Assembly: GCF_016584665.1 (NCBI RefSeq)
Contig: NZ_BBJB01000040.1
Span: 1-58,057, forward strand
Reading direction: 5' to 3'
DNA length: 58,057 bases
Source of the DNA: Pseudanabaena sp. lw0831
Lineage (GTDB): Bacteria > Cyanobacteriota > Cyanobacteriia > Pseudanabaenales > Pseudanabaenaceae
In this document: one piece after another, positions 51,878-56,500 of the stretch
Position numbering within the stretch: the stretch's first letter is position 1
How the letters are laid out: each line of letters starts with the position of its first letter
Translations under genes and position numbers: made by a program
Notes under the pieces: model-generated
Seen by the model: only the letters and a program-made list of their open reading frames with translations
Databases searched by the model: none
What the model was told of the DNA's origin: nothing

Positions 51878-54274
51878 CTATAGGTTAACAGCGATCGAAA
51901 TCTCATCACTCGCATAAAGAGCAAGATCAATAAAGTTTCCTTCCATAACTTGACCATTAACTGTCATCTGTTTGGCCTCACTATGATTAACCACGGTTAG
52001 CGAGAGCACCTTGCCGCGAAACTTGCGTTGAGCTGTAAACCCAGACCATTCAGCAGGAATTTTCGGATCGATGATCATGCCTGTGAAAGTGGGTTGGAAT
52101 CCTAAAATATAATCAAGTCCAATGCGTAACATCCACACCGCAGTGCCAGTCAGCCATGAATGACTTGCCTGTCCTTGAGTCTCGTGATCGGGGCTGGTTA
52201 CATATTCAGGATAGATATAGGGTTCCGTTTCAAAGCGATCGCATTTTGCATCCGTTGCTTGTGAAGAATTAATCGGCATCATCCGACGATAGATTTCCCA
52301 ACCAAATTCTGTATCACCATTGAGCAGAGAAGCCAGCACAAACCAAGCCGAAGCATGGTTAAATACTGCGCCATTCTCCTTCTTGCCTGGGACACAACGA
52401 CTGATTAAGCCAACGGTATCATCGATTTCCGTAAAAGATGGCGCAACAATCTGCATTCCAAAAGGAGTAGCTAGATGTTCGCGACTGCTTGCCATTGCTC
52501 TGTCAGCGCGATCCTTTGGCGCGAGTTCCGAAATCACTGCCCATGATTGCGCGTTCAAAAAGATTTTGCCCTGAGTTGCTGCCGATACACCAATCGGTTC
52601 GCCATTATCACGGAACGCACGTAAATACCATTCGCCATCCCAACAGATGTCATTAGTAACTTGGCGCAGATGCTCATAGAAGTTTTGAAATTTCTCTAAA
52701 GACTTGAGATCGCCTTGATGTTCACATACTGGCAGAGACTTATTCAACACATAGCCCAAGAAGAAAGCACCCCAAGTCGTTTCGCCCTTACCCTGTGAGC
52801 CAACATGATCGAGCGTATCATTCCAATCACCTGTAAAAATACGGGGCATTCCCTTCTCGCCTGTATTTGCGATCGCAAAGTCTAGCGCTCTGACCAAATG
52901 TTCATAGACAGTACCTGAACTATCGTCATGATAGGGAACAACTTCATCGAGAATCGAGAAATCTCCTGTTTCCTTGAGATATTCGACAATACCGAAGGGA
53001 ATCCAAAGCGGTGTGTCGGAATGGTTAGTGCGTTCGCCAGTATTTGTGAGAACAAAGTAGTTGTGTAAAGTAGAACCATCCTTAAACTGGAAGTTGAGAG
53101 CCTTAATTAATCTTTCGCGTACTCTCGCAGGATCGACCATCACCACACCGAGAATATCTTGGAAGCGATCGCGCATTCCCGTCCCAAACAACAATCCCCC
53201 GTGATAGTAACCAGAATTTCTTGCCATATCAAAGGTGACAGCCGCCTGATACTGATTCCACACATTGAGCATCGCATTAAAGGCTGCATCGGGTGTTCGC
53301 ACTTGTACACAGGATAAATGCTGATCCCATTTCTGTTTAAGTTGCAGGAATTTACTGTCAGCAACCTTTACAATCTCGCCCCTCTTTACAAGAGGAGTAG
53401 GAGGCATCTCTTTGGGAACAATCTCCAAAACCACAGCAAAATCAACAGAACCATTTGCCGCCAACGCAATCTTTGACTGCAAAGCCACTACTGGATCGCC
53501 AGCCGTAATTTCAGTATTCTGCATCACTCCAGTTTCTATCGCCACAGGATTCGCTTCCGATCTCCATCTACCGATAAAAGTATCGAGACTGCTATCAAAA
53601 CCAGCGATCGGCAAACTTTGCGAGAAATAAATCTGATATTTCCAATCGATATTTGGCTGCTTAACCGAAACCCCTTTATTCAGCACCCAATAGCGGCGTG
53701 TGGCAACCAATGCTTGCAAGTCTTTGTCGAAGTGAATATCCGTAAAATGCTTGTCATTAGGTTGATTGATCTGATCGTTGAGGGCATTCCCCATCAACAA
53801 TTCTAAAAAAGAATAAATCTCTAAATCTCGCGACTGTCCCGAAAGTTCCGTTAATTTCACTCGCCAAATTTCGGCATTGGTATCTGTAGGAACGAAGTAA
53901 GTGATTTCCCCACGAATTCCATTGATCTCAGTTGTGATTTTGGTGTATCCCTGCCCGTGCCGACATTCATAAAAGTCATAGTTAAGATTGATCGTTGGCG
54001 ACCAACTTAATGACCAATATTTCCCTGTAGTAGTATCTTTGACCATCACATAACGCCCAGGACGATCCCAAGGAAGGCAGTTATAGCGCATCCGACTAAT
54101 GCGGTTATCGCGTGGTGATTCCAAAAAGCTGAAGCCTCCGCCTGTATGGGAAATTAGCCCTGCATATTGGCTATTCCACATATAGTTAAACCAAGGGCGC
54201 GGGGTGCGCGGATCTGTAATCACAAATTCCCGATAATCTTCGGTGTAATAGCCGTATTGGTTTGCGATCGCCAC
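51878..54274 (-). CDS. GH94-family glycoside phosphorylase (cellobiose-phosphorylase-like)
   Basis: This 798-residue protein has the GH94 plan: an N-terminal beta-sandwich (1-280, YGYYTEDYREFVITDP, RPWFNYMWNSQYAGLIS), a helical linker and an (alpha/alpha)6 barrel. In the barrel, GLLFGTGMRDRFQDILG and GDWNDTLD are visible, and Asp486 of the latter is the probable catalytic acid. Such enzymes split a beta-glucoside with phosphate to give a glucose-1-phosphate. The actual disaccharide is unknown. The start is GTG at 54272-54274. A short PPTPLVKRGE peptide (near 293-302) is encoded by an inserted repeat-like sequence at 53381-53395. The gene is divergent from the EndoU gene. Confidence 0.88.
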   Translation of the reverse strand: MAIANQYGYYTEDYREFVITDPRTPRPWFNYMWNSQYAGLISHTGGGFSFLESPRDNRISRMRYNCLPWDRPGRYVMVKDTTTGKYWSLSWSPTINLNYDFYECRHGQGYTKITTEINGIRGEITYFVPTDTNAEIWRVKLTELSGQSRDLEIYSFLELLMGNALNDQINQPNDKHFTDIHFDKDLQALVATRRYWVLNKGVSVKQPNIDWKYQIYFSQSLPIAGFDSSLDTFIGRWRSEANPVAIETGVMQNTEITAGDPVVALQSKIALAANGSVDFAVVLEIVPKEMPPTPLVKRGEIVKVADSKFLQLKQKWDQHLSCVQVRTPDAAFNAMLNVWNQYQAAVTFDMARNSGYYHGGLLFGTGMRDRFQDILGVVMVDPARVRERLIKALNFQFKDGSTLHNYFVLTNTGERTNHSDTPLWIPFGIVEYLKETGDFSILDEVVPYHDDSSGTVYEHLVRALDFAIANTGEKGMPRIFTGDWNDTLDHVGSQGKGETTWGAFFLGYVLNKSLPVCEHQGDLKSLEKFQNFYEHLRQVTNDICWDGEWYLRAFRDNGEPIGVSAATQGKIFLNAQSWAVISELAPKDRADRAMASSREHLATPFGMQIVAPSFTEIDDTVGLISRCVPGKKENGAVFNHASAWFVLASLLNGDTEFGWEIYRRMMPINSSQATDAKCDRFETEPYIYPEYVTSPDHETQGQASHSWLTGTAVWMLRIGLDYILGFQPTFTGMIIDPKIPAEWSGFTAQRKFRGKVLSLTVVNHSEAKQMTVNGQVMEGNFIDLALYASDEISIAVNL
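53381..53395 (-). repeat. PPTPLVKRGE-encoding palindrome inside the GH94 gene
   Basis: CCTCTT and AAGAGG surround TAC. The minus-strand translation reads MPPTPLVKRGEI. That peptide is, from memory, a recurrent translated form of a short dispersed repeat in cyanobacterial genomes. Confidence 0.5.
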
Positions 54275-54410: not shown

Positions 54411-54974
54411 ATGACAAATGCAATGATTTCTAAGTTAGTAGTTGGGTTTGCGTCATTGGGGGCAATATTTAGTACTGTTTTCCTAAGTCCACAAGCTACC
54501 ACACCTCAAACTCAGCTTTCTGCGACTATCGTCCAAGACTCCAGCTATACAACGATTGCTAAAGCTCCTGTTGCTAAGTTGCTTACGATTAACAAAGCTC
54601 ATATCTTTCAGGGAGAAATTAATCGCCGAGGCTTGGCAGTTGGTTATCATCATCGACTTAACGGCAAAGATAGCAATAATGCCAGAATGGTCAAAATTAC
54701 AGGGTTGCCCAATAGGCAAGGTGTTTATATTGGTCGCGTCGAAATCCGTAATCCTGCCAATGGTCAATGGGTTAGCAAGTTGTCCAGTTCTACTTTTTTC
54801 CCAGATCGGTGGTCTCAGGTTCAAGTCTTGTCAGAAATCCAAAGTGCTTTTGCCTCAGCTAACAAATCTAAAGAACCTTGGCAAGGCACTTCACCAAGCG
54901 GTTTAAAAATTGAAGGTTATTACAATAAAGCCACAAATACAATTACCACCGCTTATCCCATTTATCGTAGGTAA
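54411..54974 (+). CDS. Secreted EndoU-type ribonuclease-like protein
   Basis: Residues 5-27 form a signal or anchor peptide (KLVVGFASLGAIFSTVF, then SPQA). The rest is a small bacterial EndoU-like domain: HIFQGEIN (His64), GYHHRLN (His80/81), VSKLSSSTFFPDRWS (Lys123), QSAFASANKSKEPWQG and the C-terminal TITTAYPIYRR. Two His and one Lys fit the EndoU active site, which cuts RNA at uridines. In polymorphic toxins this domain is a C-terminal toxin tip; here it stands alone with its own export signal. The ATG at 54411 is preferred because the frame upstream overlaps a promoter. A small acidic protein gene follows 75 bases later. Confidence 0.78.
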   Translation: MTNAMISKLVVGFASLGAIFSTVFLSPQATTPQTQLSATIVQDSSYTTIAKAPVAKLLTINKAHIFQGEINRRGLAVGYHHRLNGKDSNNARMVKITGLPNRQGVYIGRVEIRNPANGQWVSKLSSSTFFPDRWSQVQVLSEIQSAFASANKSKEPWQGTSPSGLKIEGYYNKATNTITTAYPIYRR

Positions 54975-54982
54975 AGCAGTAG

Positions 54983-55023
54983 TAATTTTTTGTGGCTCTG
55001 CAAAGCCGCGCCACAAAAAATTA
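54983..55023 (+). terminator. 14-bp perfect hairpin between the EndoU and acidic-protein genes
   Basis: Arms 54983-54996 and 55010-55023 pair perfectly, with a 13-nt loop. It lies 8 bases beyond the EndoU stop and may reduce read-through into the acidic-protein and recF genes. Confidence 0.65.
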
Positions 55024-55049
55024 GTTCTTTATTAAATCGCACAACCCTA

Positions 55050-55370
55050 ATGATCAATATCAAATTTTACCGAGATACGGAAGGCTATTTTAAAGCTGAT
55101 ACCGAGCCTCAATATCAACTACTCAGTCAATACTTTCAATCAGAAGTTCAAGGTGTAGCGGCTGTATGTGAAGATCTTTTAGTCACGATCGCAGAGATTG
55201 AAATAGGCGATCTCATTCAGCTAGAAGGCGTTGGTAATACTTGTGGATTGGAACTTACAGCAGATCGAGCATTGCTATGGAATGAGTTTAGCGAAGCCGA
55301 GCTAACTTTAGAACTTTCTCTAGCAGAATTCAAACAAGCTTTAGAAGACTGCCTTAGCTTTTTGCGATAA
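55050..55370 (+). CDS. Small acidic protein of unknown function, coupled to recF
   Basis: The 106 residues from ATG 55050 (MINIKFYRDTEGYFKADTEP) are strongly acidic, with many more Asp and Glu than Lys and Arg. They have the look of a small alpha/beta protein (EDLLVTIAEIEIGDLIQLEG). The ATG at 55050 is preferred over an earlier one at 54990, which lies in the hairpin. Its stop overlaps the recF start by one base (TAATG). It is not a recognised family. Because it follows an EndoU-like nuclease and is acidic, it could be an inhibitor or immunity protein. It could equally be a RecF partner. Confidence 0.62.
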   Translation: MINIKFYRDTEGYFKADTEPQYQLLSQYFQSEVQGVAAVCEDLLVTIAEIEIGDLIQLEGVGNTCGLELTADRALLWNEFSEAELTLELSLAEFKQALEDCLSFLR

Positions 55371-56500
55371 TGTATCTTAAATCTCTCCATATCAAGCAGT
55401 TTCGTAACTACATCGATCAAGAAGTTAACTTCACCGCCCCCAAGACCGTGATCGTGGGCAACAATGCTCAGGGTAAATCTAACTTGCTCGAAGCAATTTT
55501 GCTATTGGCGACCCTGAGATCGCATCGAGTGAGTAAAGATCGTGACTTAGTGAGGAATGGTGAGGCGATCGGTGAAATCATCGCAACTTGTCAGAGATCG
55601 CGATCGCCTGAGAGCTATCCCGTAGAATTATTGATGCGAATGCGGGCTAGTGGCAAGCGGACTTTAAATGTGAATGGGGTGAATCAAGCAAGGCATTTGG
55701 ATTTTTTGGGCAACCTGAATGCAGTCATGTTTTCGAGTTTAGATTTGGATTTGGTGCGGGGTAGTCCAGAGAGTCGGCGCAACTGGTTAGATACGGTATT
55801 GATTCAACTAGAGCCGATTTATATCAATCTTTTACAACAATATAACCAAGTTTTGCGGCAGCGCAATGCTTTATTAAAGTCCATCAAACAAGGGCAAATC
55901 CAATATGAATCTCAACAGATGGCACTATGGGATGCTCAACTAGTGACTGCGGGGACAAGATTAATCAGAAGGCGATCGCGTTTATTGGAAAGATTAACGC
56001 CGATCGCCCATACTTGGCATCAATCGATTAGTGGCGGTAGTGAACATTTAGAGATTACTTACGTTCCTAAATTTGCATTCTCGCCAACGGATACAGTTGA
56101 GCATATTCATCAAGCTTTTTTTGAGACACTTTTGCAGAAGGCGATAATTGAACAACATCAAGGCACTAGCTTAGTTGGACCCCATCGTGACGAGGTTTCG
56201 CTGACAATTAATGCTACGCCTGCGCGTGAATATGGCTCTCAAGGGCAACAACGCACTTTAGTACTGGCGCTAAAACTTGCTGAGTTAGAATTGCTAGAAT
56301 CAGTAGTTGGAGAACCACCATTATTACTGTTAGATGATGTACTAGCTGAGCTTGATCTGCAAAGGCAAGATCATTTACTGAATGCGATCGGCGATCGCGT
56401 TCAGACAATTATTACTACTACTCATTTGGGTTCGTTTGATGCTCAGTGGCTAAATTCCGCCCGAATTTTTCAAGTAGAAAGTGGCAAAATTTTATTTTAA
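55370..56500 (+). CDS. recF: Recombination mediator RecF
   Basis: RecF helps load RecA at gaps in replication forks. It is an ABC-type ATPase with Walker A GNNAQGKS (30-37), a long coiled-coil middle, signature YGSQGQQRT and Walker B LLLLDDVLAELD. The 376 residues are normal. The gene begins with an ATG that overlaps the stop of the acidic-protein gene. It ends in a 25-bp perfect terminator that contains the stop codon. Confidence 0.95.
   Translation: MYLKSLHIKQFRNYIDQEVNFTAPKTVIVGNNAQGKSNLLEAILLLATLRSHRVSKDRDLVRNGEAIGEIIATCQRSRSPESYPVELLMRMRASGKRTLNVNGVNQARHLDFLGNLNAVMFSSLDLDLVRGSPESRRNWLDTVLIQLEPIYINLLQQYNQVLRQRNALLKSIKQGQIQYESQQMALWDAQLVTAGTRLIRRRSRLLERLTPIAHTWHQSISGGSEHLEITYVPKFAFSPTDTVEHIHQAFFETLLQKAIIEQHQGTSLVGPHRDEVSLTINATPAREYGSQGQQRTLVLALKLAELELLESVVGEPPLLLLDDVLAELDLQRQDHLLNAIGDRVQTIITTTHLGSFDAQWLNSARIFQVESGKILF

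What the first reader, a model, noticed from the sequence alone, without database searches (positions are those of the whole stretch)
54411..55370. Stand-alone secreted EndoU nuclease followed by a small acidic protein coupled to recF
Seen: an EndoU-like domain (His64, His80/81, Lys123) with an export signal, a hairpin, then a strongly acidic 106-residue protein whose stop overlaps recF. Known: EndoU domains act as toxin tips of polymorphic toxins and need an immunity protein. Inference: the acidic protein inhibits the nuclease, or it serves RecF. Neither has been described to my knowledge. The hairpin between them could keep the two separately expressed.
Basis: partly seen in the sequence, partly recalled or inferred. 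Interest (0 to 1): 0.6.

Follow-up and report, generated by a model that had tools for sequence, protein, structure and literature searches.

The report
Secreted RNA-cutting enzyme with paired inhibitor
A cyanobacterium carries a gene for an RNA-cutting enzyme with an export signal, next to a gene for a small acidic protein that, judging from related genomes, is its dedicated inhibitor and belongs to the same family as YacL, an E. coli protein of unknown function, which gives that family a testable role.

Summary
54411-54974 encodes a bacterial EndoU nuclease (PF14436, 1.9e-26) with a hydrophobic export-type start; 55050-55370 encodes a 106-residue acidic protein whose stop overlaps recF by one base. 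Among 388 cyanobacterial genomes an intact acidic gene was found in all 23 whose stand-alone EndoU falls in the same clade, directly downstream in 20; only 1 of the other 365 has one, in a polymorphic-toxin immunity array. In the genus, 13 of 25 genomes with recF lack an intact copy; three of them keep wrecks, two together with EndoU wrecks. The same protein family lies directly downstream of EndoU genes in Priestia, Listeria, Streptomyces and Pseudomonas aeruginosa, and is homologous to UPF0231/YacL (hhalign 96.8%; shuffled controls at most 0.61%). The hairpin is a dispersed repeat. Best reading: an exported RNase with a cytosolic inhibitor, working like barnase-barstar but made of an EndoU toxin/immunity pair. 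New as far as I could search: UPF0231 as an EndoU-immunity family. No bench test exists and the complex could not be modelled.

The parts
54411..54974 (+). EndoU ribonuclease, 187 aa, export-type hydrophobic N-terminus; basic; no cysteine
   Evidence: PF14436 1.9e-26; His64, His80, His81, Lys123 invariant in 12 aligned copies; hydropathy peak at residue 10, net charge +12 from residue 31 on; cysteine count
54983..55023 (.). hairpin between the two genes; a dispersed genomic repeat, not part of the pair
   Evidence: fold z -4.06; 13 copies of its core at up to 3 mismatches in the own genome, reversed control 0
55050..55370 (+). acidic 106-aa protein, proposed cytosolic inhibitor (immunity protein) of the EndoU; UPF0231/YacL superfamily
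   Evidence: co-occurrence and adjacency; homology to partners of EndoU genes elsewhere and to YacL
55370..56500 (+). recF, neighbour only; of 7 genus genomes with the order EndoU-acidic-recF, 2 (this one and G098) have the overlap
   Evidence: TIGR00611 4.6e-98; gene order
51878..54274 (-). glycosyl hydrolase 94 family gene, divergent neighbour; stays with the pair in G038 and G137, where recF is elsewhere
   Evidence: PF17167 1.6e-115; tblastn

Best explanation
The two genes are an exported ribonuclease and its cytosolic inhibitor. EndoU is made in the cytoplasm and exported, most likely through the Sec route; in the periplasm or outside the cell it cuts RNA. The acidic protein has no export-type start, stays inside, binds the basic nuclease that has not been exported and blocks it, so the maker's own RNA is spared. 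It works like barnase-barstar, but the parts are those of an EndoU toxin/immunity pair without a delivery module. The inhibitor belongs to a superfamily that includes UPF0231 (E. coli YacL). Shown here: both genes, their linkage, joint decay, co-divergence and the homologies. Inferred: RNase activity, export, binding, inhibition, and whether the released enzyme serves RNA scavenging or harms competitors.
For: (1) Of 388 cyanobacterial genomes 27 show the acidic gene, 24 of them intact; these include all 23 whose stand-alone EndoU falls in one clade; Fisher p 3e-36, which ignores relatedness. Same strand and directly downstream in 20 of 23. The window protein alone as query already found 16 of these 23. 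(2) Overlapping stop and start (ATGA or TAATG) in 7 of those 20. (3) Joint decay: in G232 EndoU breaks off at residue 58 and the acidic gene resumes at residue 28, as if by one deletion; G117 has fragments of both together; G065 has no EndoU and a broken acidic gene. (4) Co-divergence in 12 genus genomes: r 0.85, partial r given RecF 0.65, 0 of 5000 permutations as high; mean distance acidic 0.34, EndoU 0.23, RecF 0.08. (5) Genes directly downstream of EndoU genes outside cyanobacteria are homologues: hmmsearch with A1, E set for 1000 sequences: 2.8e-13, 9.9e-10, 4.2e-9, 7.8e-6, 7e-5; 12 other small neighbours and the shuffled and reversed copies gave nothing better than 0.11; hhalign 98.9%, and 98.07% without the Proteus row that had been picked by homology, column-shuffled controls at most 0.25%. 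(6) In G335 the acidic gene lies between two barstar genes in a polymorphic-toxin array. (7) Opposite charge in all 12 pairs tested: +11 to +16 against -9 to -15.
Against: No biochemistry. The model of both proteins as one chain was poor (pLDDT 54.9, pTM 0.40), so no interface is predicted. In 3 of 23 genomes (G019, G036, G063, one genus) the two genes are apart: other contigs in two, about 24 kb in G063. Three cyanobacterial EndoU domains in long ORFs (G034 second copy, G122, G152) fall in the same wide clade and have no such partner: counted so it is 23 of 26. Two partial EndoU matches (G328, G356) were not placed; neither genome shows the acidic gene. The commoner second EndoU type also has export-type starts and no such gene. 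Profile A4 was built partly from EndoU-adjacent genes, which favours finding such genes, and the genome search scored at most 12 candidates per genome, so remote copies may be missed. Both Cronobacter partners are only borderline (0.018 to 0.21) and the Fusobacterium partner does not match. The window protein itself is below the UPF0231 cut-off.
Confidence: 0.85

Rival explanations
1. Same pair, but EndoU is a released antibacterial toxin against close relatives, and the acidic protein is immunity against siblings' toxin as well as self-protection.
For: Patchy presence within one genus (12 of 26 genomes) and joint decay; 8 of the 15 plasmid records matched by this EndoU are annotated as LXG or hemagglutinin-repeat proteins, and the closest is a Cronobacter EndoU at 41%.
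Against: No delivery, receptor or entry module recognised: an export-type start, a short linker and the catalytic domain. A cytosolic inhibitor is needed against the cell's own enzyme in either case.
Confidence: 0.3
2. The acidic protein is an export chaperone that keeps EndoU unfolded or carries it to the translocon, rather than an inhibitor.
For: Small, acidic, encoded next to its client; type VII secretion chaperones appear among the middling structure matches (9mno, Z 6.8).
Against: Homologues also follow EndoU domains of proteins annotated as type VII LXG effectors (Priestia, Listeria), a different export route; Z below 8 is within the background stated for that search.
Confidence: 0.08
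3. The acidic protein serves RecF (repair or replication factor).
For: One-base overlap with recF in the window and in G098.
Against: 13 of 25 genus genomes with recF lack an intact copy; in 4 of 12 the pair lies away from recF; only 2 of the 7 with that gene order have the overlap.
Confidence: 0.02
4. Chance neighbours: unrelated genes that happen to be adjacent.
For: A repeat in the spacer here and gaps of up to 231 bases elsewhere.
Against: Adjacent in 20 of 23 genomes of six families, and the same pairing in three other phyla.
Confidence: 0.01

Closest known systems
EndoU toxin/immunity pairs of polymorphic toxins (LXG, CDI, MafB types)
   Same: EndoU domain of the same Pfam family; partner directly downstream and, in Priestia, Listeria, Streptomyces and P. 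aeruginosa, of the same protein superfamily
   Different: Here no delivery module, only an export-type start. The immunity kinds listed for Tox-EndoU in the 2012 survey are Imm-SUKH, Imm-SuFu and Imm28 (PMC3482391, passages); none of these came up for the acidic protein
Barnase-barstar (secreted RNase with cytosolic inhibitor; recalled)
   Same: Stand-alone basic RNase with an export signal and a small acidic cytosolic inhibitor
   Different: Different inhibitor family: no PF01337 match for the acidic protein up to E 10; a barstar scores E 46 with its profile
UPF0231 / E. coli YacL
   Same: Homologous over 105 columns; 4 of the 10 cyanobacterial members scanned pass the Pfam cut-off
   Different: yacL sits between acnB and speD in K-12; EndoU rang in none of the 14 control genomes, E. 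coli among them; YacL has an insert in its last third
Second cyanobacterial EndoU type
   Same: EndoU with an export-type start. A putative EndoU-like nuclease, All2314, was seen in the Anabaena exoproteome (PMC10957091, one passage read); I did not test which type it is
   Different: Extra N-terminal region, two invariant cysteines in 44 of 44 domains, no acidic partner

Membership tests
Bacterial EndoU nuclease (PF14436) | Profile match over cut-off | tested here: met
   93.3 bits against 25.3, positions 5-128 of 129
Bacterial EndoU nuclease (PF14436) | His-His-Lys catalytic triad (as named in PMC9086364, passage) | tested here: met
   His64, His80, His81, Lys123 invariant in 12 aligned copies; placed by sequence only
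Bacterial EndoU nuclease (PF14436) | RNA cleavage | not testable with these tools
   needs protein
UPF0231 (PF06062) | Profile match over cut-off | tested here: inconclusive
   Window protein 21.8 bits against 25, so below; relatives L010 36.9, L016 35.0, L013 26.9, L106 26.2 pass; 13 of 14 members of A1 match at E up to 1; family-level hhalign 96.8%
EndoU immunity protein of polymorphic toxin systems | Gene directly downstream of an EndoU gene, across unrelated lineages | tested here: met
   20 of 23 cyanobacterial genomes of the clade; of 8 EndoU loci fetched from plasmid records 5 partners clearly homologous, 2 borderline, 1 not
EndoU immunity protein of polymorphic toxin systems | Neutralises its cognate toxin | not testable with these tools
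   joint model uninformative
Polymorphic toxin | N-terminal trafficking/delivery module joined to a toxin tip | tested here: not met
   187 aa; EndoU match 62-184; no other Pfam family
Barnase-barstar | Inhibitor of the barstar family | tested here: not met
   no PF01337 match up to E 10

The most novel reading that the evidence does not exclude
UPF0231 is, at root, a family of EndoU-type RNase inhibitors. E. coli YacL is a domesticated, toxin-less member that still binds an RNase, either a cellular one or incoming EndoU toxins, so a gene of unknown function in E. coli and its relatives would be an RNase inhibitor or a resident immunity gene.
Probability: 0.35. Interest if true: 0.78.

Novelty: new variant of a known kind. 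Interest (0 to 1): 0.6.

Why it matters
It gives an uncharacterised family, UPF0231/YacL, a proposed function and an assay. It adds an immunity family for EndoU to those listed in the 2012 survey, found behind EndoU genes of Priestia, Listeria, Streptomyces, P. aeruginosa and cyanobacteria. It also shows a toxin/immunity pair reduced to a plain exported RNase with a cytosolic inhibitor, and raises a testable question: why one of two cyanobacterial EndoU types keeps such a partner and the other does not.

Tried and rejected
AlphaFold of both proteins as one read-through chain: EndoU part poorly predicted, no interface. Structure search with the good model of the acidic protein alone (pLDDT 89.6, pTM 0.83): no Foldseek match at E 0.001 or better; second look best Z 7.7 and 7.6 (viral L protein, Pur-alpha), a Whirly protein 5.5, inside the stated background; I draw nothing from it. 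Sequence search of EndoU against PDB chains: none up to E 10.

Disulfide idea (an EndoU with a cysteine pair needs no inhibitor): 44 of 44 type-II domains have two invariant cysteines and 13 of 21 clade-I domains have none, but the other 8 have five each, so it does not divide cleanly.

Whether the genus's EndoU was captured from a toxin tip: the tree puts it near the eight EndoU domains from plasmid records, but with weak support (85/16); left open. Two partial EndoU matches (G328, G356) were dropped, so 79 of the 81 places were used. The downstream-gene clustering covered 65 places only, 44 of them type II, and reports clusters of three or more.

EndoU in phage records: none. Literature: no paper in the library holds UPF0231 or PF06062, none holds YacL with 'immunity protein' or yacL with acnB and Escherichia coli; searches on EndoU with cyanobacteria, immunity, CdiI and barstar were seen as listings, and only three of those papers were opened, by passages. 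The library lacks most subscription journals; the 2018 EndoU toxin paper (PMC6173971) is not held.

The E-values are for small ORF sets and serve only to list places. One search was one base out of frame; one search is the right one. An alignment misplaced the acidic rows and was replaced.

Full report
What is there. The window lies most likely in a Pseudanabaena genome: of six named relatives found by the acidic protein, five are Pseudanabaena and one Phormidium tenue; the own genome has 5.26 Mb. Gene order: a GH94 glycosyl hydrolase gene on the minus strand (51878-54274, PF17167 1.6e-115), EndoU (54411-54974), a 75-base spacer with a hairpin, the acidic gene (55050-55370), recF (55370-56500, TIGR00611 4.6e-98). 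EndoU matches PF14436 at 1.9e-26 over almost the whole profile and is the only match in this genome at E up to 0.01. His64, His80, His81 and Lys123 are invariant in 12 aligned copies. It starts with a hydrophobic segment (peak at residue 10) and carries +12 from residue 31 on.

The hairpin. It folds far better than shuffles (z -4.06), but 13 copies of its core at up to 3 mismatches lie in the genome on both strands, against 0 for the reversed control. In relatives the spacer differs: 7 of 20 adjacent pairs have an overlapping stop and start (six by 4 bases, one by 1), the others about 27 to 231 bases (G027 and G055 judged only by the match positions). The hairpin is a visiting repeat, not a regulatory design of the pair.

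The acidic gene follows EndoU, not recF. In the genus 26 genomes were searched. recF: 25 of 26. Full EndoU: 12 of 26. Intact acidic gene: 12 of 26, the same 12; remnants in 3 more. The pair lies next to recF in 7 of the 12 and away from it in 4 (G038, about 307 kb; G137, about 580 kb; G172 and G199, other contigs); G310 is undecided because its recF contig begins at the gene. In G038 and G137 the pair keeps the GH94 neighbour instead. The remnants tell the same story: in G232 EndoU breaks off at residue 58 and the acidic gene resumes at residue 28, as if by one deletion; in G117 pieces of both lie together; in G065 EndoU is gone and the acidic gene beside recF is broken by a stop. The acidic protein diverges faster than EndoU and RecF, and its distances follow those of EndoU after RecF is taken out (partial r 0.65, 0 of 5000 permutations).

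Across cyanobacteria. The window's acidic protein alone finds 20 of 388 genomes of the class; a 17-sequence profile (A4) finds 27, of which 24 intact. A4 includes genes first seen next to EndoU, so it leans towards them, and at most 12 candidates per genome were scored. EndoU is in 77 of 388 genomes, at 81 places. The domains fall into two deeply separate groups (65 places, 79 places plus 8 from plasmid records; two partial ones left out). All 23 genomes with a stand-alone EndoU of the first group have the acidic gene. Most of these EndoU proteins are under 250 aa; G101 is a 417-residue lipoprotein-like form, and the start of G050 is unsure. In 20 the acidic gene is directly downstream on the same strand; in 3 of one genus it is elsewhere (G063 about 24 kb away, G019 and G036 on other contigs). 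The first group also holds three weakly matching domains in long ORFs without the partner (G034 second copy, G122, G152), so by wide clade it is 23 of 26. None of the 44 type-II places examined has the acidic gene downstream, and no downstream family recurs in three or more of them. Only one genome without the first type has an intact copy, G335. Relatedness inflates the Fisher p of 3e-36, but the adjacency spans six families.

G335. On a 7-kb contig the acidic gene lies between two barstar genes (PF01337 6.5e-20 and 2.6e-18), behind a DUF6861 protein (6.2e-39) with a barnase-like end (PF00545 4.3e-4) and an eCIS-core match (0.0033), both under their cut-offs; an Ntox1 gene (5.7e-10) and a second, broken acidic copy follow. 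This is a mixed immunity array, the kind of place where immunity genes gather.

Beyond cyanobacteria. A tblastn of EndoU against plasmid records gave 15 records, best a Cronobacter EndoU at 41% identity. I fetched eight EndoU loci and tested the gene directly downstream with the acidic-protein profile (A1; E set for 1000 sequences). Five are clear homologues: Priestia megaterium 2.8e-13, P. koreensis 9.9e-10, Streptomyces 4.2e-9, Listeria innocua 7.8e-6, P. aeruginosa 7e-5 (6.9e-7 with A4). The Priestia and Listeria EndoU proteins are annotated as LXG toxins; that of P. aeruginosa is a 117-aa EndoU domain. Two Cronobacter partners are borderline (0.018 to 0.21), the Fusobacterium partner (DUF5376) does not match. 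Twelve other small neighbouring proteins and all reversed and shuffled copies gave nothing better than 0.11. Profile against profile: 98.9%, 98.07% without the Proteus row chosen by homology, shuffled columns at most 0.25%. A Proteus mirabilis homologue (4.8e-20) lies upstream of an ORF whose start reads like an Rhs core end (by eye; no Pfam match).

UPF0231/YacL. 13 of 14 members of A1 match PF06062 at E up to 1. The window protein is below the cut-off (21.8 against 25 bits), but four of ten cyanobacterial members scanned pass it, up to 36.9 bits. hhalign of the acidic family with five YacL proteins: 96.8%, E 3e-10, 105 columns; column-shuffled controls at most 0.61%. In E. coli K-12 yacL stands between acnB and speD. 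Of 14 control genomes only E. coli has PF06062 and none has EndoU. So YacL has no EndoU partner there; what it does is open.

How it works, most likely. Shown: two genes that travel, decay and diverge together; an export-type start on the nuclease, while the partner's hydrophobic peak lies inside (residues 34-57; a predicted helix at 36-51); opposite charge in all 12 pairs tested; and genes of the same family behind EndoU genes in other phyla. Inferred: the acidic protein binds and blocks EndoU in the cytoplasm while the exported enzyme works outside, as barstar does for barnase (recalled). A released-toxin role cannot be excluded; no delivery module was recognised. That a cyanobacterial EndoU-like nuclease reaches the medium is reported for Anabaena All2314 (PMC10957091, one passage read), though I did not test which of the two EndoU types it is.

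Structure. The acidic protein alone gives a confident model (pLDDT 89.6; two strands, two helices, four strands, one helix) without a decisive match to solved structures. The joint chain failed, so the interface is unknown.

What is new. EndoU toxins with immunity partners are known; the 2012 survey lists SUKH, SuFu and Imm28 partners (PMC3482391, passages). I found no text on UPF0231 or PF06062, and none joining YacL with 'immunity protein', within an open-licence library. The variant is an EndoU pair stripped to an exported RNase and its inhibitor, and the assignment of UPF0231 to the inhibitor.

Noticed in passing
L120 (G335 contig 117), 1-7080: Mixed polymorphic-toxin array: barnase-like toxin end, two barstars, two UPF0231-like genes (one broken), an Ntox1-type gene.
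   Followed up: partly
window 54986-55020 and 12 other places in the genome: A dispersed GC-rich hairpin repeat flanked by T and A runs, 13 copies at up to 3 mismatches, both strands.
   Followed up: partly
L022-L035 and other type-II loci: A second, commoner cyanobacterial EndoU type with an export-type start, an extra N-terminal region and two invariant cysteines in 44 of 44 domains, without a recurrent downstream gene.
   Followed up: partly
L172, 2121-4436: Fusobacterium plasmid with two EndoU/DUF5376 pairs in tandem; DUF5376 does not match the acidic family and may be another EndoU immunity kind.
   Followed up: no
G290 contigs C9, C13, C17 (L072, L077, L079-L081): Several recF copies with equal scores, on both strands of one contig; probably an assembly fault.
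   Followed up: no
L114, 4131-5384 (G101): A lipoprotein-like 417-aa protein with a C-terminal EndoU and an unassigned N-terminal part that holds its 13 cysteines, overlapping its acidic partner by 4 bases.
   Followed up: no
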